Positions 7,289 through 58,829 of a stretch of 64,000 bases of DNA are shown here, piece after piece. The stretch is from Novosphingobium marinum (GTDB lineage: Bacteria > Pseudomonadota > Alphaproteobacteria > Sphingomonadales > Sphingomonadaceae). Positions within the stretch are counted from its first letter, which is position 1. Every line of letters begins with the position of its first letter. The DNA is taken from assembly GCF_013408095.1 (NCBI RefSeq), contig NZ_JACBZF010000003.1, positions 248,001-312,000 of the forward strand, given 5' to 3'. The notes under the pieces were generated by a model that was given only the letters and a program-made list of their open reading frames with translations, was not told the origin of the DNA and ran no database searches. Made by a program: the position numbers and the translations under genes.

Positions 7289-7299
7289 AGGAACAAATC

Positions 7300-12532: not shown

Positions 12533-12643
12533 AATTCTTCTATCACAATTCTGTTGCCTCTTGCCCGAGCATGCTTTTCTTACCAGCCGAAATATCGCTA
12601 GGTAATCAAAGCACATGGATACAACCGCTGGGGGTAGGGTCTC

Positions 12644-39744: not shown

Positions 39745-40215
39745 CTACGCCGGAGGCTCTGGGCCGTCTCCGTCCGGATTTTCAATCTCACCCCGCCTTG
39801 GTTCTGAAGCCGCGCGAATGAGATCGTCAGCGAGATGCCTGCCTGTTTCCATGCGCCGCGCGAGCGCTTCGACGAAGAAGTCGAACCGCTTTTCTGCATC
39901 GGCACGCGCAGCGGCATTGGCTTCAAACGGCATGGCCGGGGTCACCGCCAGCCATCGCCTGAGGTAGAGCGCGAATGCCTCGTTCCCGACCTCGATATGA
40001 TAGTCGAGCTTGCCGATCTGTCGGCCTATGCGATCAAGGCGTCGGCTGAAGGCCGCTTCCATGCGTTCCGATCCATCGGGAGAGAGAAAAGAGCCGACGG
40101 CGGCCTCTACCACCGAAGCCTGGGAAACGCGCTTTCGACCCGCATAGTCTGCAAGCTGCCTGGAAAGGGCTGGCGGCAGGCGGAAGGTATGCTTGATACG
40201 GTTGCCCTTTCTCAT
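39745..40215 (-). CDS. CopG-like ribbon-helix-helix protein next to traG
   Basis: 156-aa protein with an N-terminal RHH-like segment (KHTFRLPPALSRQLADYAGRKRVSQASVVEAAV, in pieces) and a helical C-terminal half. CopG-family proteins at this place beside traG are thought to be relaxosome accessory or regulatory factors. Its ATG overlaps the traG stop by four bases (ATGA), so it is co-translated with traG. Last backbone gene before the cargo region. Confidence 0.75.
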   Translation of the reverse strand: MRKGNRIKHTFRLPPALSRQLADYAGRKRVSQASVVEAAVGSFLSPDGSERMEAAFSRRLDRIGRQIGKLDYHIEVGNEAFALYLRRWLAVTPAMPFEANAAARADAEKRFDFFVEALARRMETGRHLADDLIRAASEPRRGEIENPDGDGPEPPA

Positions 40216-42206
40216 AGCTCGATCCCGTCGCCGGGATCGAGCGCAGCGCGCCGCGCATTGGCCTGCATCCGCTCGGCCATTCTGCGATTGCGGTTTGCCT
40301 GATCGTCGTCCGTTCGGTCGGCAAACTCAAATTCGTTGGGGATCTCGACTGGCGGCGGCGCCACATCTTCGTATTCCGGCAATTCAGGGGATTGGCGGAT
40401 CCCGCCATCGGACTGGCGATCATCGACCTGAAACTCTTCAGACGCGGTCGGCGATTTCTCCAATTGCGAAGGCGCGGTCACATGTCTCCCGTGCCATTCG
40501 CTCTCGTCCGCTGCGAACTCCGGCTTTTCAACCGTCGGTGGACACTCCACCCGTTTGCTGAGCCGCGGATCGCGGTAGTAGCGCGCTTTCCTGGCACGGA
40601 TCGGATGCACGCCTGCGAGCATCACGATTTCGTCGGTATCGGGAAGCTGCATGATCTCGCCCTGGGTCAGAAGAGCGCGCGCCGTCTCCGAGCGCGAGAC
40701 CATCAAATGACCGAGCCACGGGGAGAGGCGGTGCCCGGCATAATTGCGCATTGCCCGGGTTTCGGTGGCGGTCCCGAGCGATTCCGAAACGCGCTTTGCG
40801 GTTCGCTCGTCATTGGTCGCGAAGCACACCCGCACATGGCAATTGTCGAGAATGGCATTGTTCTGTCCGTAGGCCTTCTCGATCTGATTCAATGACTGGG
40901 CGATCAGAAAGGCCTTGATGCCGTAGCCCGCCATGAAGGCGAGCGCGCTTTCGAAGAAGTCGAGCCTGCCCAAAGCCGGGAACTCGTCGAGCATAAGGAG
41001 AAGCCGCTCGCGACCGGCACCTTCCTGCAGGTCCTCGGTCAGGCGTCTTCCGAGCTGATTGAGGATGAGCCGGATAAGCGGCTTGGTGCGGCTGATGTCT
41101 GACGGCGGGACGACGAGATAGAGCGTGACCGGCCGGCCCTGTGCCACGAGGTCCGCGATGCGCCATTCGCAATGCCGCGTGACGCTGGCGATGACCGGAT
41201 CGCGGTAAAGCCCGAGGAACGACATGGCGGTCGAGAGCACGCCCGAGCGTTCGTTTTCCGACTTGTTGAGCAATTCTCTCGCCGCGCTCGCAACCACCGG
41301 ATGGACGCCGTCTTCCCCCAGATGCGGCGTGCGCATCATTGCGGTCAGTGTCGCCTCGATCGATCGGCGCGGATCGGACAGGAAGTTCGCCACCCCGGCA
41401 AGCGTCTTGTCAGGCTCGGCATAAAGCACATGCAGAATGGCCCCGACGAGCAGCGCATGGCTGGTCTTCTCCCAGTGGTTGCGCCGTTCAAGCGAGCCTT
41501 CGGGATCGACCAGCACATCGGCGATGTTCTGCACGTCGCGCACCTCGTTGATGCCGCGTCGCACTTCCATCAGCGGGTTATAGGCTGCCGACGCCTCATT
41601 GGTCGGATCAAACAGAAGCGTGCGACTGAACCGGGAGCGGAAGCCTGCGGTCAGCTCCCAGTTCTCGCCCTTGATATCATGCACGATCGCCGAGTGGGGC
41701 CAGGTCAGCAGCGTCGGGACGACAAGGCCTACACCTTTGCCGCTGCGGGTCGGTGCGAAGCAGAGCACATGTTCGGGCCCGTCGTGACGAAGATAGAGAT
41801 TGGCATGCTGGCCGATAATGACGCCCTTGCCTGCCAGAAGGCCCACGCGTGATATTTCGGAACGGGTCGCCCAGCGCGCCGAGCCATAAGTCGCGCTGTT
41901 CCTGATCTCTCGGGCGCGCCAGACCGACATGCCGATCGCGACCGCCACCGACACGAGACCGCCCGATGCGGCAATCATTCCGCCGATCTCGAAGATGCGC
42001 GGCGCATAGGCTTCGTAGCTGAACCACCACCAGAAGATGGCATAAGGCGGATAGACGGGCGCTCCGGAGACACTGAACCACGGCGCGCCCAATTGTGCTT
42101 GATAGCCGAGCGCGTGCGCCGTCCATTGAGTACCCGCCCACACACCTGCGAGCGTGAGAGCAAAGACGACGAGTATCTGACCCCACAATATCCGGGTTGC
42201 CGACAA
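40212..42206 (-). CDS. traG: TraG, type IV coupling protein (VirD4 family)
   Basis: Coupling ATPase of 664 aa that brings the relaxosome to the mating channel. Two N-terminal membrane segments (ILVVFALTLAGVWAG and a helix pair near residues 55-95) anchor it; Walker A APTRSGKG is near residues 150-157 and Walker B LLMLDEFPALG near residues 399-409. The order traG then trbB expected in trb-type elements is interrupted here by 34 kb of cargo. Confidence 0.94.
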   Translation of the reverse strand: MSATRILWGQILVVFALTLAGVWAGTQWTAHALGYQAQLGAPWFSVSGAPVYPPYAIFWWWFSYEAYAPRIFEIGGMIAASGGLVSVAVAIGMSVWRAREIRNSATYGSARWATRSEISRVGLLAGKGVIIGQHANLYLRHDGPEHVLCFAPTRSGKGVGLVVPTLLTWPHSAIVHDIKGENWELTAGFRSRFSRTLLFDPTNEASAAYNPLMEVRRGINEVRDVQNIADVLVDPEGSLERRNHWEKTSHALLVGAILHVLYAEPDKTLAGVANFLSDPRRSIEATLTAMMRTPHLGEDGVHPVVASAARELLNKSENERSGVLSTAMSFLGLYRDPVIASVTRHCEWRIADLVAQGRPVTLYLVVPPSDISRTKPLIRLILNQLGRRLTEDLQEGAGRERLLLMLDEFPALGRLDFFESALAFMAGYGIKAFLIAQSLNQIEKAYGQNNAILDNCHVRVCFATNDERTAKRVSESLGTATETRAMRNYAGHRLSPWLGHLMVSRSETARALLTQGEIMQLPDTDEIVMLAGVHPIRARKARYYRDPRLSKRVECPPTVEKPEFAADESEWHGRHVTAPSQLEKSPTASEEFQVDDRQSDGGIRQSPELPEYEDVAPPPVEIPNEFEFADRTDDDQANRNRRMAERMQANARRAALDPGDGIEL

Positions 42207-42306: not shown

Positions 42307-43008
42307 CTAGATTGCTTCCCGACTATAGTCCGGGTTACCGGACCAGGTCAGGCGGTACATCGCCCCTTGCGCGACCGATTGCACGACGTTGGGCCACAGG
42401 GCCGCGATGCAAGTTCCATCCGCATGGCGCACAGAGGGATAGATAATGCCGTTATGACCGGCTGCGCGTGCCTGCGCCGCTAGAGCATTGCCGACAGGAT
42501 AGCCTTTCGTCTTGTCCGGATCGAGGGCCGGGTGTCCGGGCTGCTCGCGCAAATCGATGAAGACGCCCGCCATGCTGGCAATCATCTCGCCATATTCGAC
42601 AACGGCATCGAAATCGCCGGCATCGGCGAGCGCCTGTGTCAGGTGATGGCCGACCTCGGCAATACAGGTCTCGACATCGAGCGCGGCATACCATGCGCCG
42701 CGGTTCGCGGGGTTGAAGCGATTGGGCTCGCGCGGTTTGGCGTAGGCAAAGCTCGCATTGATGAACCTGGCATGCGGCACGCCGTGAACCAGTTCGTCGG
42801 CTGTCAGCCCGCCAAACCCGCGCTCTTCGGCGATCAGGCGCGAACTCGTCGCCCCCTCGATTTCAGCGAGCAGCGCAAGCTCGGCATCACTGTCGGCAAG
42901 TGGAGCCATGACCGCTTCGCGCAAGCGCGCGCTGGAAACGAGCCGGACAGTCCGCTCGAACGCTTCGCGGATCTGCGGCGGCTCGCCTGCCTCCTCAGAG
43001 CCCGCCAC
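42307..43008 (-). CDS. RES-domain toxin
   Basis: 233-aa RES protein: ARFINASFAYAKPREPNRFN, then AWYAALDVETCIAEVGHHL, carry the conserved Arg, Tyr and Glu of the NAD-handling active site. RES toxins degrade NAD or ADP-ribosylate a target. The paired Xre/MbcA-type antitoxin gene lies immediately upstream and overlaps by 14 bases. Sits between traG and the relaxase gene, where it would stabilise the element. Confidence 0.88.
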   Translation of the reverse strand: MAGSEEAGEPPQIREAFERTVRLVSSARLREAVMAPLADSDAELALLAEIEGATSSRLIAEERGFGGLTADELVHGVPHARFINASFAYAKPREPNRFNPANRGAWYAALDVETCIAEVGHHLTQALADAGDFDAVVEYGEMIASMAGVFIDLREQPGHPALDPDKTKGYPVGNALAAQARAAGHNGIIYPSVRHADGTCIAALWPNVVQSVAQGAMYRLTWSGNPDYSREAI

Positions 43009-43426
43009 GAAGCGCGTCGATATATTGTCTGGTCTCCAGCATGCGCGGAATGCCGCCTTCGATCATCGCCCCGATGGGCGAGCGGCGATCAAACAACGGG
43101 GCCCTGTTTTCGAGCTTTGGCCAGCGATCGGCCATGTCGTTGGCGAACAGCAGATGCAGTCCCTTGAACAGACCGATCAGCGCCGACGCGCGGGTCAGCT
43201 GGTCCTGACCGAGCGAGCCCTCCCAGGTTCCGGCTTTCATCCGGTCCCAGGTGCTTTCGGACACGCCGAGCAGCGCAGCGCCCTCAGCGTTGCTCGCACC
43301 CCAGGCCCCAATGAGGCGCAGCACGGCCTTTACCGCAGCGCTGGTGAGGCGGCTGCGATCACCGTCGCTTGCAAAGGTCTGAAGCCCCGGGGGAGCTTCG
43401 GCATGCTGAATCGCTGCACTTACCAT
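42995..43426 (-). CDS. Xre/MbcA/ParS-type antitoxin (DUF2384)
   Basis: 143-aa antitoxin of the RES-Xre class from the ATG at 43426, which has AGGAG six bases upstream. An HTH-like part (LGVSESTWDRMKAGTWEG) is followed by the toxin-binding DUF2384 domain ending LFDRRSPIGAMIEGGIPRM and YIDALRGGL. The longer frame to 43504 would cross the promoter. Antitoxin first, toxin second is the usual gene order. Confidence 0.87.
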   Translation of the reverse strand: MVSAAIQHAEAPPGLQTFASDGDRSRLTSAAVKAVLRLIGAWGASNAEGAALLGVSESTWDRMKAGTWEGSLGQDQLTRASALIGLFKGLHLLFANDMADRWPKLENRAPLFDRRSPIGAMIEGGIPRMLETRQYIDALRGGL

Positions 43427-43438
43427 ATCGCATCTCCT

Positions 43439-43474
43439 GATGCGTTTATAAGCATCATATGGTGCGTTTGTCAA
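43439..43474 (-). promoter_or_regulatory. Consensus-like promoter of the RES-Xre operon with overlapping palindromes
   Basis: On the minus strand TTGACA (43469-43474) and TTATAA (43446-43451) are 17 bases apart, a near-consensus sigma-70 promoter, unusual for this GC-rich window. Two dyads overlap it: GATGC-N8-GCATC (43439-43456) over the -10, and GCACCATATGATGC (43452-43465) in the spacer. They are good candidates for autoregulation by the antitoxin complex. Confidence 0.7.
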
Positions 43475-43500
43475 GATTTCCGTTATGATGCCGGTGCTCC

Positions 43501-45243
43501 TCAAACCGCCGGACCGTGCGAACGCGCAAAGTTCCAGTCGACACCGCCTCGCACATGGACCTTGCCAGCGACTTCTTTTCCAAGATGCCGCTCGAGGTCT
43601 TGCCTCCAGGGCACGAGCTGCAAACCCACTCCGTCATCGATCATGGCGAAGCGACCCGACGCCAGCGAAATGCGCTCGCGGTAGATGCCGGAAATGTGAT
43701 CACCTTGCGTTACCGGATTTGCCAGACGACCATGACGCGCAGCCAGCGCTTTACCTGCCGCGTCCAGTTCCTGCTTGCGGAGCGTTCCGAGCAGGTTGCG
43801 CACCAAGGTCACGCTCCTACCATGTCGCTTCGCAAGACCTTGATCGACGAGCCAGTCACGGCGCTCGTCAAGAGCCTTCCGGACTTCATTGCCGAAGCCG
43901 CCTCCCAGCGACGCGGCTCGTGCCGACAGCAGCTGCCGGTCGAGCCAGGTCGCCCCGCGCGCGTCAATCTGCCGCTCGAGCGGCAGGTCCGAACGCACCA
44001 GCAGGCTGCTGCGCCGTCGCCCGTTGCGGTCGGTCCATTCGCCTGTCTCGACGATTGCGCCGGGTGCTGCATCGCTTGTCTGGTCCAGATCGGGAAAACG
44101 CAGATAATGCGTACGCCCGTCCACTCCTTCGACGATCGCATAAGCCTCGCCTGTCAGCTCGTTATGGAAACCGCGCTCGACCAACCTGCCGATGACTCGG
44201 CGGTTCTCGTCTTCGCCATGCAGCGCGAAGGCTGCAGGGGCAACTTGTACGCCCCGTTCACTCATCGCCTTGTGCAAGGTCTTGATGATGTCGCCGCGCT
44301 CGCCAAGCGCGCGCAAGGTCGGTTCGAGATCTGCGGCCAAGGTCCAGCGCGCCGCCCCGATCCGCTCGGCCAATCCCATGCGTTCGAGCGTTCGTGCGCG
44401 GCCGATAAGGAATGCGCGGTTGCTGCGGCGTGTCGCATCGACTTCGGGGGACAAATCGACCACGCCGAGATCGTCGCGTTGCTTTTGCAGCCGGCGGTCG
44501 AGTGAGGTCCAGCGCTCGGCATCGACCTCGCGGCGAAGCGCTAGCTGAATATCGCGCTCGCTGCGCGGCCCGAGTTCGATAGTGACGCGCTCCTGGGCAC
44601 GGGCACGCATGCCTTCGCTGATATAAGAGCGATCGATCACCAGATCCCTGCCGTCCGAGGCAACTCCGCGGACCAGAACATGGACGTGCGGGTTATCGGT
44701 ATTCCAGTGATCGACCGCTACCCAGTCGAGGCTGGTGTCGAGGTCGCTCGCCATATCTTCAAGCAGTTCGCGCGTGAAAGCGCGCAGGTCAGCCATCTCG
44801 CTCGCGTCTTCCGGCGACACGATGAAGCGGAAGTGATGCCGGTCGTCTTCGCAGCGCGCGGCGAAGGCATCGCCATCGACCTCATCCGACGAGGCATCGA
44901 ACATCTGGGCATCCGATCCGTCACGGGTGACGCCGTCGCGTTCGAGATAGGCGATGTGGCGAGCGAGCGGTGCAGAGCGGAAGCGGCTGCCGCCATGACG
45001 AACGACGCGCGCCTTGATGATGACCCGCCGCTGGAAAGCATGGGGGCTGCCTCTGAACGCAGCATGTTTGCCGCGCCCCAGGTGACCGGCTCCGCCACCT
45101 GCCCGGCCTCGCCCGAGCGGTGTATAGCCTGACCGGCGTGAGGCCTGCAGCACGCGTCCCACCAGCGAACCGGCCTTGCGATAGGCGCGCGCATCGCTGT
45201 CTCTCGACCGACCCGGCCTGATGTCGAATTCGTCGTCAGCCAC
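43501..45243 (-). CDS. DUF3363-type relaxase (VirD2-like)
   Basis: DNA relaxase of about 580 aa that nicks oriT and pilots the transferred strand. The metal-binding HxH motif is NPHVHVLVRG near residue 185; the N-terminal basic region (GSPHAFQRRVIIKARVVRH) and C-terminal DUF3363 part are as in Tn4371/ICE relaxases of this type. The start is taken as the GTG at 45243 (VADDEFDIRPGR); a TTG two codons upstream is also possible. No strong ribosome binding site. Downstream is the RES-Xre pair; upstream is the tandem insertion sequence. Confidence 0.88.
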   Translation of the reverse strand: MADDEFDIRPGRSRDSDARAYRKAGSLVGRVLQASRRSGYTPLGRGRAGGGAGHLGRGKHAAFRGSPHAFQRRVIIKARVVRHGGSRFRSAPLARHIAYLERDGVTRDGSDAQMFDASSDEVDGDAFAARCEDDRHHFRFIVSPEDASEMADLRAFTRELLEDMASDLDTSLDWVAVDHWNTDNPHVHVLVRGVASDGRDLVIDRSYISEGMRARAQERVTIELGPRSERDIQLALRREVDAERWTSLDRRLQKQRDDLGVVDLSPEVDATRRSNRAFLIGRARTLERMGLAERIGAARWTLAADLEPTLRALGERGDIIKTLHKAMSERGVQVAPAAFALHGEDENRRVIGRLVERGFHNELTGEAYAIVEGVDGRTHYLRFPDLDQTSDAAPGAIVETGEWTDRNGRRRSSLLVRSDLPLERQIDARGATWLDRQLLSARAASLGGGFGNEVRKALDERRDWLVDQGLAKRHGRSVTLVRNLLGTLRKQELDAAGKALAARHGRLANPVTQGDHISGIYRERISLASGRFAMIDDGVGLQLVPWRQDLERHLGKEVAGKVHVRGGVDWNFARSHGPAV

Positions 45244-45253
45244 AGACAAGAAA

Positions 45254-45316: not shown

Positions 45317-45767
45317 TACAGCAGAGACGGCGCATATTCTCCCGCAAAACCAACCACCTGCAGCCCGGCCGACGGCGCTGCTTTTATCTCGCCATCTTAT
45401 TTGGCTTCGTTTTTGAGCAAGTATTCGCCATCGTCGTTTCCTCTCTTTAGCACTAAAAGACCAACTATTCGACGCCAATGTAGGCTGGTCTGCGAAGTAG
45501 CGGTTGAGGTCTGATACGCCGCGCAATCTTCCGTGCTCATCGAAGCCGGTATCGCTCTGCATCGAGGCGATACTTGGGCGCTCGCGGCACATGTCGCTAT
45601 CGGAGTTACGGGGCATCGTCACAGGCAATCAAGCGTGGTCAGTCTGCACTGCCACAGGCGAGATATCGTGCTTCCCGTTGTCCTGGTCTGTATCATTCCT
45701 TCTGCCGCTTGCGCGGACCTCCGTATGTTGTCGAGCCGTCAGTCGGCTGCGTTCTTCGTGTTCGTCA

Positions 45768-46856
45768 TCATGACCGCGCGTAGCTCAGCCGCTGCATCTT
45801 GGCGGCGTAGGCGCTGTCGAACTCGTGCGCTTCGGCGTCGGGATCGCCGACATAGAACGTGCCGTCGCGCCACATCGCATGCATCACGATGGCGAGCTTG
45901 CGGGCGACCGCGACACGCGCCTTGGCGTGGCACTTGGTCTTCGCGAGCTTCAGTCCCCACGTCTTGATCGTGTCGCGCCCCTTGAACCGGGTGAGCATCG
46001 CGGATGCAGCCTCGTAGAGCGCGCGGCGCATATCGGGATCACCCGCCTTGCTGATGCGGCCCTTCACGTCGATCGACGAGCCCGACTGCCAGCGGCGCGA
46101 GGTAAGCCCGAAGTATGCTGCGACGTTGCGCGAGCGGCGGAAGCGGGTGGGATCATCGATCGCGCTCTTGAAGCTCAGCGCGGTCACCGGGCCGACGCCC
46201 GGGATCGCCATGAACCGGCGGCACAGCTCGTCGCGCATGGCGAGCTGGGTGACGAGCTTGTGCAGGATCAGATACTCTTCCCACAGCGCCGCGCGGGCTC
46301 TGAGCATGCAGTCCATCAGCCCTGCGGTCATCGCATCGCCTGCGACCGCCTCGCGCACGGCCTTCGCCATCGATCCGCGTCCGACCTTGCCAAGCCGGAT
46401 CCCGAACACCTTCAGCGAGTGGCGGATGGCGTTCTCGATATCGAGGAACTTGCGCTTGAGGTTGCGCCGCTGGACCAGCAGCAGGCGTATCCGGTAGCAC
46501 TCCTCGGTCTTGATATGCGCCTGCCGGAACCACCCGGTGCGCATGATATGGGCGATACCGAGCGCATCGGCGGCGTCGGTCTTGTTGCGCTGGGCCGACA
46601 GCGCGGCGCGCACATGGCGCGTCTCCAGACAGACGGCGGGCAAGCCCAGCTCGATCAATCCGGCATGCAGCCACGGCGATACCGATCCCGCCTCATGGCC
46701 GACCCGGCGCAGCCGTCCCGCAAACCGCTCCAGCGCCTCAGCGATCAGCTCCGGCTCGGTCGGGACCTCGGTCTCCAGTACCACCTTCCCGTCATCGCCC
46801 ACCACACAGATCGCGGTCTCCTCGATCGATACATCGAGCCCTGCAAAGTACTCCAT
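45768..46856 (-). CDS. IS110-family transposase, copy 1
   Basis: DEDD recombinase of 362 aa: FAGLDVSIEETAICVV (Asp), GHEAGSVSPWL (Glu) and KTDAADALGIAHIM (Asp pair) in the RuvC-like domain, PGVGPVTALSFKSAI and AAYFGLTSRRWQSG in the C-terminal half. The ATG at 46856 has AGGAG seven bases upstream. At the dimer junction the frame extends upstream into the other copy to 46997, adding 46 residues from an ATG that itself has a GAGAGGAAA leader. Confidence 0.92.
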   Translation of the reverse strand: MEYFAGLDVSIEETAICVVGDDGKVVLETEVPTEPELIAEALERFAGRLRRVGHEAGSVSPWLHAGLIELGLPAVCLETRHVRAALSAQRNKTDAADALGIAHIMRTGWFRQAHIKTEECYRIRLLLVQRRNLKRKFLDIENAIRHSLKVFGIRLGKVGRGSMAKAVREAVAGDAMTAGLMDCMLRARAALWEEYLILHKLVTQLAMRDELCRRFMAIPGVGPVTALSFKSAIDDPTRFRRSRNVAAYFGLTSRRWQSGSSIDVKGRISKAGDPDMRRALYEAASAMLTRFKGRDTIKTWGLKLAKTKCHAKARVAVARKLAIVMHAMWRDGTFYVGDPDAEAHEFDSAYAAKMQRLSYARS

Positions 46857-47333
46857 CATCCGACTCCTACGCTTCCGTTTAACCGGAGCGAGGGAAGCGC
46901 CTGATGCAGCCGCTGTGCAAGACTTGGCCGCAGCCAAGTCCTCCCCAAATACAGCGGCAATCTTATTTGGCTTCGTTTTTGAGCAAGTATTCGCCATCGT
47001 CGTTTCCTCTCTTTAGCACTAAAAGACCAACTATTCGACGCCAATGTAGGCTGGTCTGCGAAGTAGCGGTTGAGGTCTGATACGCCGCGCAATCTTCCGT
47101 GCTCATCGAAGCCGGTATCGCTCTGCATCGAGGCGATACTTGGGCGCTCGCGGCACATGTCGCTATCGGAGTTACGGGGCATCGTCACAGGCAATCAAGC
47201 GTGGTCAGTCTGCACTGCCACAGGCGAGATATCGTGCTTCCCGTTGTCCTGGTCTGTATCATTCCTTCTGCCGCTTGCGCGGACCTCCGTATGTTGTCGA
47301 GCCGTCAGTCGGCTGCGTTCTTCGTGTTCGTCA

Positions 47334-48422
47334 TCATGACCGCGCGTAGCTCAGCCGCTGCATCTTGGCGGCGTAGGCGCTGTCGAACTCGTGCGCTTCG
47401 GCGTCGGGATCGCCGACATAGAACGTGCCGTCGCGCCACATCGCATGCATCACGATGGCGAGCTTGCGGGCGACCGCGACACGCGCCTTGGCGTGGCACT
47501 TGGTCTTCGCGAGCTTCAGTCCCCACGTCTTGATCGTGTCGCGCCCCTTGAACCGGGTGAGCATCGCGGATGCAGCCTCGTAGAGCGCGCGGCGCATATC
47601 GGGATCACCCGCCTTGCTGATGCGGCCCTTCACGTCGATCGACGAGCCCGACTGCCAGCGGCGCGAGGTAAGCCCGAAGTATGCTGCGACGTTGCGCGAG
47701 CGGCGGAAGCGGGTGGGATCATCGATCGCGCTCTTGAAGCTCAGCGCGGTCACCGGGCCGACGCCCGGGATCGCCATGAACCGGCGGCACAGCTCGTCGC
47801 GCATGGCGAGCTGGGTGACGAGCTTGTGCAGGATCAGATACTCTTCCCACAGCGCCGCGCGGGCTCTGAGCATGCAGTCCATCAGCCCTGCGGTCATCGC
47901 ATCGCCTGCGACCGCCTCGCGCACGGCCTTCGCCATCGATCCGCGTCCGACCTTGCCAAGCCGGATCCCGAACACCTTCAGCGAGTGGCGGATGGCGTTC
48001 TCGATATCGAGGAACTTGCGCTTGAGGTTGCGCCGCTGGACCAGCAGCAGGCGTATCCGGTAGCACTCCTCGGTCTTGATATGCGCCTGCCGGAACCACC
48101 CGGTGCGCATGATATGGGCGATACCGAGCGCATCGGCGGCGTCGGTCTTGTTGCGCTGGGCCGACAGCGCGGCGCGCACATGGCGCGTCTCCAGACAGAC
48201 GGCGGGCAAGCCCAGCTCGATCAATCCGGCATGCAGCCACGGCGATACCGATCCCGCCTCATGGCCGACCCGGCGCAGCCGTCCCGCAAACCGCTCCAGC
48301 GCCTCAGCGATCAGCTCCGGCTCGGTCGGGACCTCGGTCTCCAGTACCACCTTCCCGTCATCGCCCACCACACAGATCGCGGTCTCCTCGATCGATACAT
48401 CGAGCCCTGCAAAGTACTCCAT
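47334..48422 (-). CDS. IS110-family transposase, copy 2
   Basis: Same 362-residue protein as copy 1, offset by exactly 1566 bases. The open frame continues upstream to 49106 by chance through the transglycosylase region; that extension is not credible because it leaves the element. The natural ATG is at 48422 with AGGAG upstream. Identity of the two copies points to a recent event. Confidence 0.92.
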   Translation of the reverse strand: MEYFAGLDVSIEETAICVVGDDGKVVLETEVPTEPELIAEALERFAGRLRRVGHEAGSVSPWLHAGLIELGLPAVCLETRHVRAALSAQRNKTDAADALGIAHIMRTGWFRQAHIKTEECYRIRLLLVQRRNLKRKFLDIENAIRHSLKVFGIRLGKVGRGSMAKAVREAVAGDAMTAGLMDCMLRARAALWEEYLILHKLVTQLAMRDELCRRFMAIPGVGPVTALSFKSAIDDPTRFRRSRNVAAYFGLTSRRWQSGSSIDVKGRISKAGDPDMRRALYEAASAMLTRFKGRDTIKTWGLKLAKTKCHAKARVAVARKLAIVMHAMWRDGTFYVGDPDAEAHEFDSAYAAKMQRLSYARS

Positions 48423-48615
48423 CATCCGACTCCTACGCTTCCGTTTAACCGGAGCGAGGGAAGCGCCTGATGCAGCCGCTGTGCAAGACTTGGCCGCAGC
48501 CAAGTCCTCCCCAAATACAGCGGCAATCCCTCCCTTCCTTTGGTGCGCAAGCCTCCCGTCCTTCGCCCGCTTTCGCCAGGGAACGCATGGCTGCGCGAAG
48601 GTGCGAGGCTCGCTT

Positions 48616-49296
48616 TCATTGGGAGGAAGCCGTCGAGACGGGCGCGAATAGATCGTGCGCGGCTTGTTCCGGTCGCGCGAAGGGGTTCGCCGCGGGGCCG
48701 GGCATAGCCACCTCGTCCAACTCTTTTCGCGCTGCGCCGGGAGGCTGCAAGGCGCCAACCGGAACATTCCTGGCTTGTAGAGGCGCCGCCGCAAACATGC
48801 GCTCGGACTGCAACAGCGGCGCAATCCGGGCGACATAGCGGCGCGTTTCGAGTGGCAGCGAACGCCGTCCGGCAAGCCAGTCTTCGTAGCGTCCCGGACC
48901 TGCATTGTATGCAGCGAGGAAGCCTTGCGCGCCGTAGCGATCGTACATTTCGCGCAGGTAAGACGTGCCGGCCAGAACGTTGTCGCGCGGGTCGAACGGG
49001 TCTTGCCCGAGGGAGAACCGGGCGCGCTGCCGCGACCAGGTTCCGGGCATGAGCTGCATGAGACCCATCGCTCCTGCTCTGGAAACCGCCCGCACCCGGC
49101 CCGCACTTTCGGCGCGGATCACCGCGTAGATCCAGTGCTCGGGAATGCCGAATTGCTGCGATGCTTCGCTGACATGCGCTGCAATCTCGACGCCCTGGGA
49201 AGCTCGGACAAACTGCTCCGATTGCGCAAAAACCTGTGCCGGACTCGCCGCCACCATGGCCGCCAGGAGTCCCGGCAGAAGATACAGGCGGAGCAC
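48616..49296 (-). CDS. Conjugation-associated lytic transglycosylase
   Basis: Periplasmic peptidoglycan hydrolase of the SLT/VirB1 type that opens the wall for the mating channel. The catalytic Glu is in AVIRAESAGRVRAVSRAGAMGLMQLMPGTW (shown to identify the motif ES-x-AGLMQ-like), followed by AAYNAGPGRYEDW. Start: the GTG at 49296 lies four bases after the DUF736 stop with AGGA eight bases upstream and gives 226 aa with signal peptide LYLLPGLLAAMVAASPAQVFA. Longer in-frame starts up to 49491 would overlap the DUF736 gene deeply. Confidence 0.85.
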   Translation of the reverse strand: MLRLYLLPGLLAAMVAASPAQVFAQSEQFVRASQGVEIAAHVSEASQQFGIPEHWIYAVIRAESAGRVRAVSRAGAMGLMQLMPGTWSRQRARFSLGQDPFDPRDNVLAGTSYLREMYDRYGAQGFLAAYNAGPGRYEDWLAGRRSLPLETRRYVARIAPLLQSERMFAAAPLQARNVPVGALQPPGAARKELDEVAMPGPAANPFARPEQAAHDLFAPVSTASSQ

Positions 49297-49300
49297 GGAA

Positions 49301-49633
49301 TCAATCCTTTGCCGGGCGGCGCGCACCGCGCGACCATATAAGGACATGGCTCTGGCCGTCAGAACTGAACAGATTGGCGCGCAGAGGCCGCGGCAATACC
49401 GGATCGTCGATGACGAGCGTGACAAAACTGCCTGCCTTGTCGCCGACATGTTTCCAGCCTGCACCCACCTCGTAGGTTTCCTCGCCTTCACCTGCCATGA
49501 TGCGATAGTCAGGGGCGTTCTCGGTGTCGCCGGGGTCGGCGGCCACCAGGGTCAGCGGTGCGTCGATGGTCAGGGTTTGCAGGCGCCCTTCAAAGCCGTC
49601 GGGTGTGGCTGCAAAAGTGCCGATACAGGTCAT
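49301..49633 (-). CDS. DUF736 protein
   Basis: 110-aa DUF736 family protein, small, acidic and all-beta in appearance: IGTFAATPDGFEGRLQTLTI at the start and AGWKHVGDKAGSFVTLVIDDP in the middle. The family is almost confined to alphaproteobacterial conjugative elements, next to traF and the transglycosylase as here. Function unknown. Overlaps the traF stop by four bases. Confidence 0.85.
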   Translation of the reverse strand: MTCIGTFAATPDGFEGRLQTLTIDAPLTLVAADPGDTENAPDYRIMAGEGEETYEVGAGWKHVGDKAGSFVTLVIDDPVLPRPLRANLFSSDGQSHVLIWSRGARRPAKD

Positions 49634-53255: not shown

Positions 53256-53642
53256 TCAGTCGATCGGAGGGGCGTCCTGGTTGTCGCCGCCATTGGCCCG
53301 CGAGAGGAAATCGACCTTGTCGGCAAGGATCTCCGAGCCATACCGCGTCACACCGTCCTGGTCTTCCCACTGCGTGTAGTGGATACGGCCCTGGACCGAG
53401 ACCAGCTGGCCTTTCGAGCAATACTGACCGACGGTCTTGGCGAGGCCGTTGAAGCAGGTCACACGGTGGAATTCGCTGTCCTTGGCGGTGTAGCCGTTCT
53501 CGTCCTTGTAGGTCTTGCCGTCCTTGTCGCGTGCAGGACGATCGGTGACGACAGTGATCCCGGTGACGCTGGTGCCGCCCTTGGTCTCGCGGGTGTCGGG
53601 ATCGCGGGCGATGCGGCCGGTGAGGATTGCGATATTGGTCAT
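53256..53642 (-). CDS. ssb: Single-stranded DNA-binding protein
   Basis: 128-aa SSB with an OB fold: NIAILTGRIARDPDTRETKGG, then FHRVTCFNGLAKTVGQYCSKGQLVSVQGRIHY. The usual acidic tail ending in DIPF is shortened to DAPPID. Start at the ATG 53642 with AAGGAA nine bases upstream; a TTG two codons earlier is possible. Element-encoded SSBs protect incoming single-stranded DNA and suppress the SOS response in the recipient. Followed by its own terminator. Confidence 0.9.
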   Translation of the reverse strand: MTNIAILTGRIARDPDTRETKGGTSVTGITVVTDRPARDKDGKTYKDENGYTAKDSEFHRVTCFNGLAKTVGQYCSKGQLVSVQGRIHYTQWEDQDGVTRYGSEILADKVDFLSRANGGDNQDAPPID

Positions 53643-53910
53643 GATCAAATTCCTTCAGTTCCTCAAACCGGAGACCATCTCCGGCTTGCGAACATCCAGA
53701 AGAAGCAGGGCATGGGAGGACTGCACCGCAGGCCTGAAGGGCCGAAGGGAAACCTGTTCATGACGGGTGGTGCGGGCAGGCGGCGAAGCCGCCAACACGG
53801 CCGGAAAGGAACGGGTTGCGGCTCCTCAGCTGACCTGGTTCAGGACTGTTCGCGAAGAAAGCCGGATGGGTATCGGGTGCGGGTCTGAAGGTGCCAGGAC
53901 CCTGCTGCAA

Positions 53911-54180
53911 TCAGCTTACCTCATTGCCTTCCGATGCCGCCAGGAGATCCATGAAGTTGCGGGCTGCTTCCCGGTCTTCCTCGTTCTCGAAGGCCACGTC
54001 GAGGTCGGGGGCAGACCCGAGCAGGTAGAGCATGGCCCACAGGGCAAAGCGTTTTCCCCGGTCCTGCTCCAGACCGAGATCGACCTGGCATCGCTCGATC
54101 CCCGAGGCCAAGGTTTCTGCGCCAATCGCTCCAGGATCGGCAGTGCCAAAATAGCGGATGAGAAGCGTATCAAGGTCCAT
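53911..54180 (-). CDS. Hypothetical protein, 89 aa
   Basis: Acidic, mainly helical protein (MDLDTLLIRYFGTADPGAIG..., ALWAMLYLLGSAPDLDVAFENEEDREAARNFMDLL). No family recognised. A 24-codon frame starting at ATG 54244 overlaps its start and may be a leader or another small gene. It follows the 117-aa gene on the same strand with a 71-base gap. Confidence 0.55.
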   Translation of the reverse strand: MDLDTLLIRYFGTADPGAIGAETLASGIERCQVDLGLEQDRGKRFALWAMLYLLGSAPDLDVAFENEEDREAARNFMDLLAASEGNEVS

Positions 54181-54251
54181 CGCACTCTTTTCGGATCATC
54201 GGTCGGGCCGCGGCGAGGAAGGCCAGCATTCGTGGCCCGGTCATGCGTCGC

Positions 54252-54605
54252 TCAATCAGCGGTGGGTTGCTCGCGAAGCCGCCGGGCGCGCTCGACGAAG
54301 TGCTCCATCTGGGTGGCGGCATGCAGGGTAAGCGGATGCGGCTTCGCATCGGCACGCGGGGATATGAATTCCGCGATTTCTTCGATTGCTGCAAGCTGAT
54401 CGGCGCTGGCCTTCGACAGAAGGCCGAGCACCATGTTCTCAAGGGCGATCACCCTGATGCGCAATTGGATGATCTCGGCATCGGAAAGTGGCGGAATATC
54501 CCATTTCTCGCAATCGGCAGCGAGCGCTTCCTGCGGCCCGCAGGGCAATGCCCCGCCTTCGTCTTCCCAGCGCGACAGCGCCCCGGCTTTTCCCGTTTCC
54601 GACAT
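54252..54605 (-). CDS. Hypothetical protein, 117 aa
   Basis: Soluble protein starting MSETGKAGALSRWEDEGGALPCG, with a heptad-like helix LSDAEIIQLRIRVIALENMVLGLL in the middle and ending RRLREQPTAD. AAAGGAACC precedes the ATG at 54605. No family recognised; it belongs to the backbone block upstream of ssb and probably co-transcribes with the 89-aa gene. Confidence 0.6.
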   Translation of the reverse strand: MSETGKAGALSRWEDEGGALPCGPQEALAADCEKWDIPPLSDAEIIQLRIRVIALENMVLGLLSKASADQLAAIEEIAEFISPRADAKPHPLTLHAATQMEHFVERARRLREQPTAD

Positions 54606-54711
54606 ATGCGGTTCCTTTCATAACCAACGAGGCGATCGTCTGCACGCTGCTCACATAGCACAAAGCCCTACCGGGATGCGCCTGGCACGGCGACAGCGAA
54701 GCCGGGCAAAC

Positions 54712-54747
54712 GGAACCCCGCGCGGGTTGGTCTTCACGCGGGGTTCC
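54712..54747. terminator. Perfect 11-bp inverted repeat between backbone and copper cluster
   Basis: GGAACCCCGCG (54712-54722) and CGCGGGGTTCC (54737-54747) with a 14-base loop. No strong T-run on either side. It lies 141 bases after the last copper-cluster gene and before the 117-aa gene, so it may end copper-operon transcription or mark an insertion boundary. Confidence 0.45.
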
Positions 54748-54888
54748 TGAACGACCCCTTGGGGGCACCTGCGACCCGCAGGGCTTCGGGGGGAGGCGGG
54801 GCCGTCCTTTCCTGATCTTGCGTTGTTCGTTGCGATTTCTTGCCGAGGGTCTCTCCTGAATAACTGTGTCACCGGGAAACGCGTCCGA

Positions 54889-55296
54889 TCACATGCCTTC
54901 CATGTCGTGATCGGCCATCGAGGACATGTCATGGCCCGCATGGGGATCGGCGGGTTGGGTCGCTTCGCTCGCGGGTTGTGTGCCCGCTGCTGGCGCTGCG
55001 GGTTTGGCAGTTGCGCGTGATGCGGGAGAGGCAGCAGGCCGTGAGGCGGTCGGCGCGGCGCCATTTGTCGAAAGAGCGTCCTGCCGCGCAGTCGCTGCCT
55101 CATCTTCGGAGGGAGAGGCTGCCGGATCGGCGAGGCCCGGCTCGGGTGCCGTGCCAGCCACCACCGCAGCTTCGCCCATAGGCGAAACCTCGGTGATCGG
55201 TGTGCTCTCCTGCGCCTCGTCGCAAGCAGCAAGAGCGGACATCAAGGGCGCGATCGCGAGAAACCCGATCGCTACATTCAATCTGGAAGTACGCAT
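54889..55296 (-). CDS. Met/His-rich lipoprotein of the copper cluster
   Basis: 135-aa lipoprotein: FLAIAPLMSALAAC-D is a lipobox at about residues 12-25, followed by an Ala/Pro-rich linker and the tail DPHAGHDMSSMADHDMEGM, rich in Met, His and Asp as in periplasmic copper-binding proteins. Start ATG at 55296. Lies 14 bases after the DUF2231 gene, in one transcript with it. Likely a periplasmic copper sponge or chaperone; inferred from composition and neighbours. Confidence 0.65.
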   Translation of the reverse strand: MRTSRLNVAIGFLAIAPLMSALAACDEAQESTPITEVSPMGEAAVVAGTAPEPGLADPAASPSEDEAATARQDALSTNGAAPTASRPAASPASRATAKPAAPAAGTQPASEATQPADPHAGHDMSSMADHDMEGM

Positions 55297-55310
55297 GCTT
55301 TTCAACTCCT

Positions 55311-55982
55311 TCAGAGCCAGGAAATACCGAGGTGGTTCGGTCCATGCGCGAGCTCGCCGCCAAGGAAGCCCTGGATGAGAACGAGTGCCGCCATGGAGAA
55401 GATCGAGGCGCGCAACCATGCACGGCTCTGGCTCGGCCTGCTCGCGAGATACGCCATCGCAATACCGAGAACCGCGATCAGCATACCGTTCCATCGATGC
55501 ACCTGCATGACAGTGTCGCCGCCGAACCACAGCCCGGTGTGAATCCATCCGAACAGGACTGCGACCACCGCGCCGATGGCTCCGCCGTAGACAAGCACGC
55601 GCACCGCACTTTCCAGGCCCGCTCCTTTCCGGCGCATCACGAACAATTCGGTGGCCGCAGCCATGAGAAACAAGGCGATCGGGAAATGGATCGTTGCCGG
55701 ATGCAGCTTCTTCATTACGGCCATGAGTCCGGCCTCGCCCACATCCGCATGGCCACCGGCCTCGTCATGGCCTCCGCCCGCTTCGTCGTGCGCGCCGGAC
55801 GACTCGCCAGCATCGGCAGTCTCGCCCATCTGCGCCATGGCCGCCTGGTCGTGCGCATCGCCATTGGTGGCAGCAGGCGCGGCGCTCGCCTGTTCGCCGT
55901 GCTTTTCGTCGCCATGAGCCTGAACGGGTCCGACGAAGAGCAGGCTTGCGGCGAGCAGCGCCAGAAATGAGGGGGCTTTCAT
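55311..55982 (-). CDS. DUF2231 membrane protein with His-rich periplasmic segment
   Basis: 223-aa protein: signal peptide MKAPSFLALLAASLLFVGPVQA, then a loop with repeated HDEAGG and other His/Asp/Glu clusters (about residues 24-85), then four membrane helices starting KLHPATIHFPIALFLM, the DUF2231 signature. Start ATG at 55982; upstream in-frame codons would precede the signal peptide. Expression probably starts at the ECF-like promoter at 56032-56056. Presumed role in copper or heme handling at the membrane. Confidence 0.75.
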   Translation of the reverse strand: MKAPSFLALLAASLLFVGPVQAHGDEKHGEQASAAPAATNGDAHDQAAMAQMGETADAGESSGAHDEAGGGHDEAGGHADVGEAGLMAVMKKLHPATIHFPIALFLMAAATELFVMRRKGAGLESAVRVLVYGGAIGAVVAVLFGWIHTGLWFGGDTVMQVHRWNGMLIAVLGIAMAYLASRPSQSRAWLRASIFSMAALVLIQGFLGGELAHGPNHLGISWL

Positions 55983-56031
55983 GTCTCGTATATCTCCCGA
56001 CCCTGCAGTTAAAGTGCGACCTATGTGCCTG

Positions 56032-56056
56032 ATACGCACCGCAGCCGCATGCCCCT
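56032..56056 (-). promoter_or_regulatory. AGGG-N15-GCGTAT, candidate ECF promoter of the DUF2231-lipoprotein unit
   Basis: Minus strand: AGGG (56053-56056), exactly 15 bases, GCGTAT (56032-56037), 50 bases before the DUF2231 start. The same motif with the same spacing lies upstream of the cnrY-like gene, and a close variant upstream of the divergent methyltransferase, which supports recognition by the ECF sigma factor encoded at 60690-61250. Confidence 0.55.
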
Positions 56057-56213
56057 CGCATTAATTTGATGGTATTGGCGCGACAGATGTGCGTCCGCCG
56101 TATCACGTCTGATGGCGGCACCATCGCGATCGTCGAACGCATTCGGCTCCTGGCCGCGTTCGGCCTGGCGAACGAGGGTAAGGCGTTCGCCCACGCGCAT
56201 TAGCCCCATGGGC

Positions 56214-56945
56214 TCAGGCGAGCTTGCTCTTCTTTGCGCGGCGGCGCAGCCTCGGCATCCGGTTCGCAAGCAGGACGAAACCCGACAGGGCTATGATCGT
56301 ACCGCCAATGCCGAACAGCAGAAGCCACCAACTGTTGATGCGATCACGCTCGGTCCAGTCCATGATGTGCAGGCCCCAGATGAAATCGAACAGGCGCCAA
56401 GTATCACTACGCGCCGCCCCGAGGGTACCGCTGCTGGCATCGATGTAGAGGCGCGTCGAAGCCTCGTCAGCATAGGTGACCTGCCAGGCCGGAAAAGGGC
56501 CGCGAAACTCGGTCCCCACCGGTTCGTGAACGAGCCGCGCGCCTTCGATCGTCGTGCGCGGTCCGGTCCATGCGCGCAAGGCGATGGATCTTGCCGTCGC
56601 AGCCGAGATGGGGGAGAGTTTGCGCCCTGTCACCGGATCGTGAAGGCTCACGCTACCGTCAACCTTTCGGACCTCGGTCACGGCATCGCCGTCGAGCGAA
56701 CGCGTCGTCACCGCTGCAAGAGTACCGTCATTTGCGACCCAGGCCGGGAGCGGGGCATCGGCGGGCAGCGCCTCTTGTTCACGCGAAACGACATGTTCGG
56801 AGCGAACTTCTTCCAGGTCGAGAAACGACATGAGGGCGCCGGTTCCCATCCACAAGAGAACCTGGACACCGACGAAAATCGCCAGCCATTTGTGGATCTT
56901 GCTGCCGAGCACATGCAGGCGCAGCTTCAGCGACGGCGTTGCCAA
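56214..56945 (-). CDS. PepSY-associated membrane protein
   Basis: 243-aa protein of the PepSY/PiuB-like type: an N-terminal helix with the conserved HKWLAIFVGVQVLLWMGTGALM (in pieces), a periplasmic PepSY-like domain (VTYADEASTRLYIDASSGTL) and C-terminal helices with GLHIMDWTERDRINSWWLLLFG. Such proteins occur with metal uptake or reduction systems. Last gene of the cnrYXH-copAB string, 27 bases after the preceding gene. Confidence 0.78.
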   Translation of the reverse strand: MATPSLKLRLHVLGSKIHKWLAIFVGVQVLLWMGTGALMSFLDLEEVRSEHVVSREQEALPADAPLPAWVANDGTLAAVTTRSLDGDAVTEVRKVDGSVSLHDPVTGRKLSPISAATARSIALRAWTGPRTTIEGARLVHEPVGTEFRGPFPAWQVTYADEASTRLYIDASSGTLGAARSDTWRLFDFIWGLHIMDWTERDRINSWWLLLFGIGGTIIALSGFVLLANRMPRLRRRAKKSKLA

Positions 56946-56972
56946 CCGGTGCTACCTCTTCGAAAGCCGTAA

Positions 56973-57491
56973 TCAGTTGCGCGGCGCGCGCGACGAGGAA
57001 TGGTACTGGACGATTCTCCACCCGTCCGCATCGTGAGCAAGCACCGATGTCGCCACGCCGTCGCGCTCGATCACCCGGCCATCGGTAAGTTCGATACGAT
57101 ATCCATACGTCTCATTAGCATGGGCCATGTGCCCCATCCGGGTGACGGTCAGCGTGGGGTCGGTAAAGGTGAAGCTCACGATCGCGTCGAGCTCGGGTCC
57201 GAGATGATGCTCCATGTAATTCGCGAAACTTCCTTCGGCCTTGCCATTCTCGAAGATGGCCGAGTCCTCGGTGAAGAGCGCGCGCATTGCCTGCGCGTCG
57301 CGCGCTTCAAGAGCGGTCCGATAGGCCTTGAGAGTTTCTTCCGCGCCCGTGACATCCTCCGCCGTAGCGTCCATCGCGTGCATCTGATGGTTCGCATGGG
57401 AAGAGTGGTCCATCTGCTGCGCGAAGGCTGGCAGCGGTATCAGCGTGGCAACAAGCGCAGTCGCCGCGATGCGTGTCAGAGTCTTGGTCAT
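56973..57491 (-). CDS. Exported SnoaL/DUF4440-like (NTF2-fold) protein with His/Met motif
   Basis: 172-aa periplasmic protein: signal peptide ending LPAFAQ (about residue 25), a short metal-binding-like stretch MDHSSHANHQMHAMD, then an NTF2-like fold (LKAYRTALEARDAQAMRALFTEDSAIFENGK; WRIVQYHSSSR at the end). Probably a copper-binding accessory factor; no catalytic assignment possible. In line with copB (24-base gap). Confidence 0.72.
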   Translation of the reverse strand: MTKTLTRIAATALVATLIPLPAFAQQMDHSSHANHQMHAMDATAEDVTGAEETLKAYRTALEARDAQAMRALFTEDSAIFENGKAEGSFANYMEHHLGPELDAIVSFTFTDPTLTVTRMGHMAHANETYGYRIELTDGRVIERDGVATSVLAHDADGWRIVQYHSSSRAPRN

Positions 57492-57515
57492 AGGAGTTCT
57501 ATCCTTTTTGAGATT

Positions 57516-58829
57516 TCAGAACCAGAATCGCACACCGACGACATAATTGGTGACGCTCGGATCCTCTCCCGCGGCCCGCGCAAAATCCGCGCTGTCGCCG
57601 ATGCGCCATTCCTGCGAAACGCCGACATAGGGTGCGAATTCGCGTGCGAACTCGTAGCGAAGACGCAGGCCCGCCTCGATCCGATCGAGCCCGGCACCGA
57701 TGCCCAGCTCGGGAATGTCCTGCGCAGAAAGCGCGACCTCGGCTCTCGGTTGGAGGATCAACCGCTGCGTGATGCGCTGGTCGAGTTCGCCCTCGATCCG
57801 CGCGGTCACATCGCCCTTGGTGGACACGAAGGCCGCAGCATCGACCTCGAAACGGTACGGCATGAGGCCCTGGATCCCGATAACCGCGTGCGTGCGCTCC
57901 GGACCGGTGAGGTCCTGGCGAACACCCGCCTGGAAATCGAAGAAGGGCGCAATGGCGCGGCTCCAGAGCGCCTGAACCTCGGCGCCTTCTATGGGTTCGC
58001 CGAAGCTGCCCTCCCCCTCTGACTTGAACCAGAATTTGTCGATGTCGCCGCCATAATAGCCCTGGATGTCCCACAGATATCCATCCTTCCCCTCGCGGGC
58101 GCGGTATTCGAACCGATCGCCCTGAAACCAGAAGCGCATTCCTCCGTCGGTCTCGCGGACAAGCTCGCGGCGCGCTTCGTTCATGGCTTCCTCGCCCCAG
58201 ATGGCGACCGCCGCGCGCGCGGGGCCGCTCCCGGCTTCTGGAGGAGGCGGCAGCAGCGGGATATCATCGTCCGCGCCCATCTGCATCGCCGAATGGTCCA
58301 TGCCCTGCATGTCCTGCGAAGGCGTCTCCCCATGGTTCATCTGGCTGTGATCCATCTGCCCATGGTCCATCGACGAACTGGCTTCCGCCTGTCCCATCTC
58401 GCCGTGATTCATCTGCGAATGATCCATCGCGCCTTCGGCAGGCTTGCCCTGCGGCACCGAGCCGTGATCCATTCCGTCATGACTTTCGGGCGATGCCTGT
58501 GGACGGGCAGCGTCCATCGGCATTGTCATGCCAGAATGACCGTCCCGAGCGGTCATCGAACCATGATCCATGGTTGAATGATCCATCTCGGAGTGGTCCA
58601 TGGCGGCTTCAGGCTGAGCAGCCGGTTCGCATGCTCCATCTGCTACGGGATGCCCCATTGCGCGATGGCGCTCGGCTTCTAGTTCGCACTTTGTCTTCGC
58701 GTCAGACTGCGCCTCGACACTCTGCTGCGGTTCCGTCGGCGAATGACCGGCATGCTGCGCCGCCGCGGGGGAGGCGAGAACTGAGCCGGCTGCGACCGAT
58801 GCGAGCAGGCTGGCAATACGAATTTTCAT
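57516..58829 (-). CDS. copB: CopB/PcoB copper-resistance outer-membrane protein
   Basis: 437-aa outer-membrane protein. After the signal peptide (AGSVLASPAAAQ) comes a long Met/His/Asp-rich region with many MDHS/MDHG repeats (about residues 25-180), then the CopB barrel domain (WDIQGYYGGDIDKFWFKSEGEG; EWRIGDSADFARAAGEDPSV) ending in Phe, as outer-membrane barrels do. Binds copper at the outer membrane together with CopA. The start overlaps the copA stop by four bases. Confidence 0.92.
   Translation of the reverse strand: MKIRIASLLASVAAGSVLASPAAAQHAGHSPTEPQQSVEAQSDAKTKCELEAERHRAMGHPVADGACEPAAQPEAAMDHSEMDHSTMDHGSMTARDGHSGMTMPMDAARPQASPESHDGMDHGSVPQGKPAEGAMDHSQMNHGEMGQAEASSSMDHGQMDHSQMNHGETPSQDMQGMDHSAMQMGADDDIPLLPPPPEAGSGPARAAVAIWGEEAMNEARRELVRETDGGMRFWFQGDRFEYRAREGKDGYLWDIQGYYGGDIDKFWFKSEGEGSFGEPIEGAEVQALWSRAIAPFFDFQAGVRQDLTGPERTHAVIGIQGLMPYRFEVDAAAFVSTKGDVTARIEGELDQRITQRLILQPRAEVALSAQDIPELGIGAGLDRIEAGLRLRYEFAREFAPYVGVSQEWRIGDSADFARAAGEDPSVTNYVVGVRFWF

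What the first reader, a model, noticed from the sequence alone, without database searches (positions are those of the whole stretch)
45394..48525. Exact head-to-tail dimer of an IS110-family element
Two 1566-bp units abut without extra bases. At the junction the transposase frame of copy 1 opens 46 codons into the end of copy 2, from an ATG at 46997 with its own GAGAGGAAA leader. Abutted ends are the form expected from a circular intermediate integrating next to a resident copy, and may create a more active transposition unit.
Basis: seen in the sequence. Interest (0 to 1): 0.6.

Follow-up and report, generated by a model that had tools for sequence, protein, structure and literature searches.

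The report
RNA-guided IS dimer at conjugation origin
Two identical copies of a jumping gene sit head to tail where a conjugative element is probably nicked to start DNA transfer, and a guide-like RNA segment of the jumping gene matches that site, which is rebuilt after insertion so that copies can stack.

Summary
Confirmed: two identical, abutting 1566-bp units (45394-46959, 46960-48525), the only copies found in this draft genome. The element is an IS1111-type member of the IS110 family, in a conjugative element between a lytic transglycosylase gene and a DUF3363 (VirD2-like) relaxase gene. Its target is a sharply conserved block beside the relaxase gene; in some relatives it reads TATCCTGC, a known MOBP nick motif. 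A segment of the IS non-coding region (TATCTCGCC) is complementary to the target, and guide and target change together in relatives. Empty sites show that insertion falls beside the block and the IS end supplies its GA, so the block, and hence the target, is rebuilt. This explains stacking; two decayed stacks occur in relatives. The junction ORF is real: right end (ribosome site, ATG) and left end are in phase with the transposase in most relatives, joined only in a circle or dimer; exceptions exist and the extension is predicted disordered. Not shown: nicking at the block, RNA production, transposition, long-read proof of the dimer. My literature searches found no report of an RNA-guided IS aimed at oriT. 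Verdict: a new variant of a known kind.

The parts
45394..46959 (-). IS copy 1 (next to the putative nick site); border uncertain by 3 bp
46960..48525 (-). IS copy 2 (identical, outer)
45768..46853 (-). transposase gene of copy 1, 361 aa from the usual ATG
   Evidence: Pfam run on the identical copy 2
47334..48419 (-). transposase gene of copy 2, 361 aa, DEDD_Tnp_IS110 and Transposase_20
46854..46997 (-). junction-dependent 48-codon extension: ATG 46997 in copy 2 right end, remainder in copy 1 left end
45657..45665 (-). guide segment TATCTCGCC, copy 1
47223..47231 (-). guide segment TATCTCGCC, copy 2
47150..47243 (-). approximate guide-RNA region of copy 2, conserved in 16 aligned sequences, covarying stem (ends not mapped)
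45584..45677 (-). approximate guide-RNA region of copy 1 (same sequence)
45385..45393 (-). target stretch GGCGAGATA, complementary to the guide
45381..45396 (+). conserved block CTTTTATCTCGCCATC, putative nick region; nick predicted between 45391 and 45392
   Evidence: motif comparison; nicking itself not tested
45398..45404 (.). right-end subterminal inverted repeat, copy 1 (46964-46970 in copy 2)
   Evidence: read
46945..46951 (.). left-end subterminal inverted repeat, copy 1 (48511-48517 in copy 2)
   Evidence: read
43501..45249 (-). DUF3363 VirD2-like relaxase gene
48616..49491 (-). lytic transglycosylase (SLT) gene
40212..42206 (-). TraG-type coupling protein gene

Best explanation
An IS1111-type RNA-guided insertion sequence that targets the nick region of the origin of transfer of elements with DUF3363 (MOBP, VirD2-like) relaxases. 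An RNA from the 3' non-coding region pairs with the conserved block beside the relaxase gene; an excised circle recombines after a GA at the edge of the block. The IS right end itself ends in GA, so the block is complete again after insertion: oriT probably stays usable and the target is rebuilt. A second circle can then enter between the resident copy and the block, giving a head-to-tail pair. SHOWN: exact dimer; guide-target complementarity with joint change; empty sites; rebuilt block; junction ORF in phase in most relatives; two other stacks. INFERRED: that the block is the nick site, that the RNA is made and guides, circle formation, the order of insertion, and that the IS is the first DNA to enter a recipient. 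Least certain: that the junction-completed ORF raises transposase production in circles and, permanently, in the dimer.
For: Of 27 relatives (transposase identity >= 52%, right end in view) 26 have the block directly after the right end and 13 a DUF3363 relaxase within 2.6 kb. Empty sites, one (L068) identical to the window's joined flanks over 60 bp each side. Block present upstream of 28 of 30 fetched relaxase loci counting variants and filled sites and of 9 of 10 chosen plasmids. Guide test: 15 of 25 pairs perfect against 7.4 expected on re-pairing; p = 0.0023 on 12 unique combinations. Further stacks L054 and L037. The same site is hit by a different IS110 element, 54% identical in transposase (L008, L009).
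Against: No nicking, transfer, RNA or transposition data. No hairpin beside the block is statistically supported. 10 of 25 guide-target pairs have a mismatch or wobble. L035 and L042 sit at sites that do not look like an oriT; 14 of 27 have no relaxase match within reach, 4 of them because the contig ends. Both copies in the L054 stack are broken. The dimer may be an assembly product. No sigma-70-like promoter was found at the junction.
Confidence: 0.72

Rival explanations
1. Assembly product: a single chromosomal copy plus excised circles make a loop in the assembly graph that was written out as two copies.
For: 22-contig draft; no 16S match found (weak: 5 of 14 controls also missed); copies identical; in other drafts contigs break at the IS (L033, L034, L044-L047, L064).
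Against: Junction is exact and inside a 412,805-bp contig. Stacks exist in other records (L054, L037). Even this rival needs real right-end/left-end junctions in the sample.
Confidence: 0.25
2. The dimer arose by homologous or replicative slippage of one copy, not by a second guided insertion.
For: Identical copies cannot show the order of events.
Against: Duplication of exactly one IS with perfect ends needs repeats that a single copy lacks; other stacks join two different elements (L054).
Confidence: 0.1
3. The conserved block is not the nick site but another signal of the relaxase gene, such as a regulator or promoter site.
For: It lies upstream of the relaxase gene; no supported hairpin; most copies differ from TATCCTGC by one or two bases.
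Against: Versions reading TATCCTGC on the other strand at the same place in L097, L086, L088, L096, L132, L135, L137; 7 of the 10 chosen plasmids are typed MOBP; known nick motifs agree (PMC7755788 tables, passages).
Confidence: 0.15
4. The conserved flank is simply part of the IS end.
For: Conserved after the right end in 26 of 27 relatives.
Against: Absent from the dimer junction and present in empty sites.
Confidence: 0.02

Closest known systems
IS1111-family elements with a seekRNA (ISEc11, ISPa11, ISKpn4, ISPst6; PMC11187229)
   Same: DEDD transposase with Transposase_20 domain, subterminal inverted repeats, long non-coding region downstream of the gene holding a short match to the target
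   Different: Target is a putative oriT nick block that is rebuilt by the IS end; split junction ORF. The main-text passages I searched in that paper mention no conjugation, relaxase or transfer origin
IS621 and other IS110-group elements with bridge RNA (PMC11208160)
   Same: Circular form recombining at a short core, RNA pairing with the target
   Different: RNA in the left end there; target REP elements; shorter repeats
ISGdi15 on pGDIPal5II (NC_010123), annotated relative
   Same: Transposase 68% identical, same place between transglycosylase and VirD2-family relaxase genes
   Different: Target variant GGCTGGATA with two guide misfits; right-end mini-ORF out of phase
IS30 tandem dimers (PMC9333248, search listing with start of abstract only)
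   Same: Abutted IS ends as an intermediate
   Different: Another family; no guided target stated in the part seen
IS4321/IS5075 and attC-targeting IS1111 elements (recalled; not read here apart from mentions in PMC11187229)
   Same: Target a conserved site of another mobile element
   Different: Sites are transposon ends or integron cassettes, not oriT

Membership tests
IS1111 group of the IS110 family | DEDD catalytic domain and Transposase_20 C-terminal domain | tested here: met
   Pfam PF01548 and PF02371; D55, E102, D141, D144 invariant in 14 sequences
IS1111 group of the IS110 family | GL-P----S(t)G motif in the C-terminal domain (wording from PMC11187229) | tested here: inconclusive
   GLTSRRWQSG here: S in place of P; L008 and L043 have the P
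IS1111 group of the IS110 family | subterminal inverted repeats | tested here: met
   TATTTGG/CCAAATA, 7 bp, at the short end of the 7-17 bp range given in PMC11208160
IS1111 group of the IS110 family | longer non-coding region downstream of the transposase gene | tested here: met
   about 374 bp downstream, about 106 bp upstream
IS1111 group of the IS110 family | RNA with matches to both target strands | tested here: inconclusive
   top-strand match found and covarying; a bottom-strand match was not identified; RNA itself not observed
IS1111 group of the IS110 family | circular intermediate with abutted ends | not testable with these tools
   abutted ends seen in the dimer only
MOBP/VirD2-type oriT (for the target) | nick motif like YATCCTG|C next to the relaxase gene | tested here: met
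   block upstream of 28 of 30 relaxase loci with variants and filled sites counted (L076 lacks upstream DNA, L094 is a miss) and 9 of 10 chosen plasmids (L138 a miss); TATCCTGC versions in 7 loci
MOBP/VirD2-type oriT (for the target) | inverted repeat beside the nick site | tested here: inconclusive
   1 of 57 below p 0.05; p 0.042 for one of 10 settings
MOBP/VirD2-type oriT (for the target) | site-specific cleavage by the relaxase | not testable with these tools
   needs a nicking or transfer assay

The most novel reading that the evidence does not exclude
A lineage of RNA-guided insertion sequences has specialised on the conjugation nick site. Each insertion spares and rebuilds the nick block, places the IS a few bases behind the nick so that it is the first DNA to enter each recipient, and leaves the target open for more copies. 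Its transposase gene is split across the IS ends, with ribosome site and start codon in the right end and the rest in the left end, so only a circle or a stacked dimer carries the complete long gene; the dimer is a permanently switched-on form.
Probability: 0.28. Interest if true: 0.85.

Novelty: new variant of a known kind. Interest (0 to 1): 0.66.

Why it matters
Guide RNAs of the IS110/IS1111 family are studied as genome-editing tools. Here would be a natural set of guide-target pairs that changed together at three guide positions, aimed at a highly conserved site of conjugative elements without breaking it. It gives a simple reason why such elements stack, a marker for transfer origins (including sites with no relaxase nearby), and a testable idea that a gene completed only by circularisation works as a switch.

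Tried and rejected
Rejected: that the conserved flank belongs to the IS. That IS110 elements in general sit there: of 33 more distant relatives (29-50% identity) 0 had block or relaxase in the scan; but that scan misses variants, since L107 (45%) proved by eye to sit at AAGGCAAGATTAAAG with the guide ATCTTGCCT, and L110 had only 185 bp in view.

Led nowhere or weak: hairpin beside the block (one search's arm test used a wrong offset, repeated); sigma-70 promoter or terminator at the junction (0); Rfam on the window (0); order in the extension (residues 1-45 below pLDDT 50); coding pressure on the middle of the left end (1292 non-synonymous against 340 synonymous differences, so frame is kept but the peptide is loose); a bottom-strand guide match (not found by eye).

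Other dimers: the junction pattern occurred in 2 of 397 family genomes, the window's own and G204, where no IS is present; among fetched loci it also occurs in L037. The pattern would miss diverged junctions such as L054's. A viral-contig scan for right end plus block gave 6 stretches: L128 a full element, L129 a right end, 4 apparently chance.

Dropped before counts: one search's 27 leaves out re-fetched copies of the same places, elements cut by contig ends (L033, L034, L056) and broken or fragmentary matches (L048, L051, L053, L055, L007/L061); L051 does have the block. The 15 left ends leave out L039 (frame-shifted). The 15 sites were chosen by the core motif, so its core conservation is partly by selection; the GA and the AAAG outside it are not. 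The 10 plasmids were chosen by me from 291 records. The 25 pairs were compiled by hand, before L042 was seen.

Literature: searches (35 papers, 25 listed; 0; 43, 20 listed; 6 listed) showed no title or abstract start about an IS guided to oriT; these papers were not read through, and most subscription papers are not held.

Full report
OBSERVATION. Two 1566-bp units, 45394-46959 and 46960-48525, are identical and abut (0 mismatches). A 3-bp ATC is shared by the low flank, the junction and the high flank, so borders are uncertain by 3 bp. The window's own genome (22 contigs, 3.59 Mb) returned only these two copies. The ORF from the ATG at 46997 gives 409 aa instead of 361; 38 nt of the extension lie in copy 2 and 106 nt in copy 1's own left end.

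IDENTITY. The protein has the DEDD_Tnp_IS110 and Transposase_20 domains; the four acidic residues are invariant in 14 aligned sequences. The 7-bp subterminal inverted repeats and the long region downstream of the gene place it in the IS1111 group as described in PMC11187229 (abstract, sections 6, 9 and 13, and passages) and PMC11208160 (passages).

PLACE. The insertion lies between a lytic transglycosylase gene and a DUF3363 relaxase gene. TraG, S26 peptidase, DUF2840, RepA-like, SSB, TrbE-, TrbC- and TrbB-like genes are also in the window. Of 27 relatives with transposase identity of at least 52% and the right end in view (the window counted once; four copies from one Hellea genome kept), 26 have the block directly after the right end, and 13 have a DUF3363 relaxase within 2.6 kb. 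Of the 14 without a relaxase match, 4 end within 700 bp of the transposase gene (L005, L041, L044, L046). L037 lies beside an integrase gene, L058 beside an OLD-like nuclease gene. L054 has a weak relaxase fragment (E 0.089). The exception to the block, L042, has GACAAGATAA and a guide changed to match. In the same scan 0 of 33 relatives at 29-50% identity had block or relaxase, but L107 among them sits at a variant block by eye.

EMPTY SITES. In 30 fetched relaxase loci the block stands upstream of the gene in 24 by a strict pattern (these include the window itself, one site filled by another IS110 and one with an IS-end scar) and in 4 more by a looser one (L074, L086, L088, L096). L076 has no upstream DNA and L094 is a miss. 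L068 equals the window's two flanks over 60 bp each. Over 15 non-redundant empty sites the stretch GA-n-GGC(A/G)AGATAAAAG has 1.4-2.0 bits at all but two positions (n 0.8, A/G 1.0), and neighbours have at most 1.1 (the core was the selection motif). In 10 plasmids chosen from 291 records the block is found upstream of the relaxase in 9 (L138 is the miss). On the other strand the block reads TATC(C/T)TGC or TATCTCGC; TATCCTGC occurs in L097, L086, L088, L096, L132, L135 and L137. Known MOBP nick motifs include TATCCTG|C, CATCCTG|C and TGCTTG|CCA (tables of PMC7755788, passages only). I therefore read the block as the nick region, with the nick between 45391 and 45392 (inference). A hairpin was not demonstrated.

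GUIDE. About 100 bp after the gene lies GCACGATATCTCGCCTG; TATCTCGCC is the reverse complement of the target GGCGAGATA. Over 25 element-target pairs 213 of 225 positions pair and 15 of 25 pairs are perfect; re-pairing at random gives 201.8 and 7.4, and the observed values were not reached in 20,000 trials. On 12 unique combinations p = 0.0023. Relatedness is only partly removed. Joint changes occur at guide position 5 (C-G or T-A), 9 (C-G; T-A in L041 and Hellea; G-C in L128) and 8 (L042). Not perfect: L038, L039, L009, L060, L050, L098, L107 (mismatch) and L035, L008, L097 (wobble). The RNA region is conserved in 16 sequences and folds with a covarying stem (15 of 37 predicted pairs with a both-sided change in at least one sequence).

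WHY IT STACKS. Insertion falls after GA, and the right end itself ends in GA, so the block is complete again beside the right end and remains a target. In L054 (Methylocystis) a truncated outer element abuts a different inner element that lies next to the block; both are broken. In L037 about 70 bp of an outer right end abut the left end of an inner element with an open transposase gene. In 397 family genomes the intact junction occurs only in the window's genome; the second match, G204, has no IS. For ISEc11 circles were found without detection of the rejoined target (PMC11187229 passages), so a circle may form while the resident copy stays, which would favour re-entry beside it (inference).

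JUNCTION GENE. The right end carries a ribosome-site-like run and an ATG; its phase to the terminal GA is 1 modulo 3 in 26 of 26 loci and in L097, L128 and L129, but 0 in L098; in L042 the border is uncertain. The left end is open in the transposase frame with lengths of 102, 105, 135 or 138 nt in 15 of 15 close relatives, also in L128; L039 is frame-shifted, and L041, L042, L044-L047 and L050 have stops. At oriT the small frame ends after a few codons; across a circle or dimer junction it runs into the transposase. The left-end middle evolves loosely and the extension is predicted disordered, so its value, if any, may lie in translation start. No sigma-70-like promoter was found there.

TRANSFER (inference). 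If the nick is right, the transferred strand begins CCATC and enters the IS at once, followed by the transglycosylase, peptidase and SSB genes. These and the transposase gene lie on the - strand and so would use the transferred strand as template, as PMC11541004 (passages) reports for SSB and anti-defence genes enriched in leading regions. Whether the IS profits is open.

LIMITS. No experiment; draft genome; unnamed G genomes; literature limited to the open library, of which passages rather than whole papers were read.

Noticed in passing
window 5922-14971: Between trbB-like and traG genes lies a cargo stretch with a class V aminotransferase, DUF4007, a weak DUF6079 match and a GmrSD restriction protein; the mix recalls DNA-phosphorothioation defence (recalled, not tested).
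   Followed up: no
window 42307-43504: RES-domain toxin and Xre-like antitoxin pair between the coupling-protein and relaxase genes.
   Followed up: no
window 53256-60634: SSB gene on the putative leading side, then DUF2231, PepSY, CopB and multicopper oxidase genes, a copper-resistance set.
   Followed up: no
L008 and L009: A different IS110 element (54% transposase identity), 1530 bp and identical in two genera, sits at the same block in different conjugative elements.
   Followed up: partly
L057 (G102) 8499-11668: Left-end fragments (positions 1-147) and transglycosylase pieces repeat every 1205 bp, three times: a tandem amplification not bounded by the IS ends.
   Followed up: no
L089 (second relaxase locus of G102): A short right-end scar (about 16 bp) next to the block with no IS body directly attached.
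   Followed up: no
L058 near 7970; L037 near 4460: Block and IS without a relaxase nearby, beside an OLD-like nuclease and a HEPN/nucleotidyltransferase gene (L058) or an integrase gene (L037): possible orphan transfer origins in islands.
   Followed up: partly
L042 1060-1560: Relative with an altered guide (TATCTTGT) beside a terminator-like flank with GACAAGATAA: a possible natural retargeting.
   Followed up: partly
L107 2700-2850: A more distant IS110 (45%) also sits at a nick-like block (AAGGCAAGATTAAAG) with a matching guide, so the habit is wider than the close clade.
   Followed up: partly
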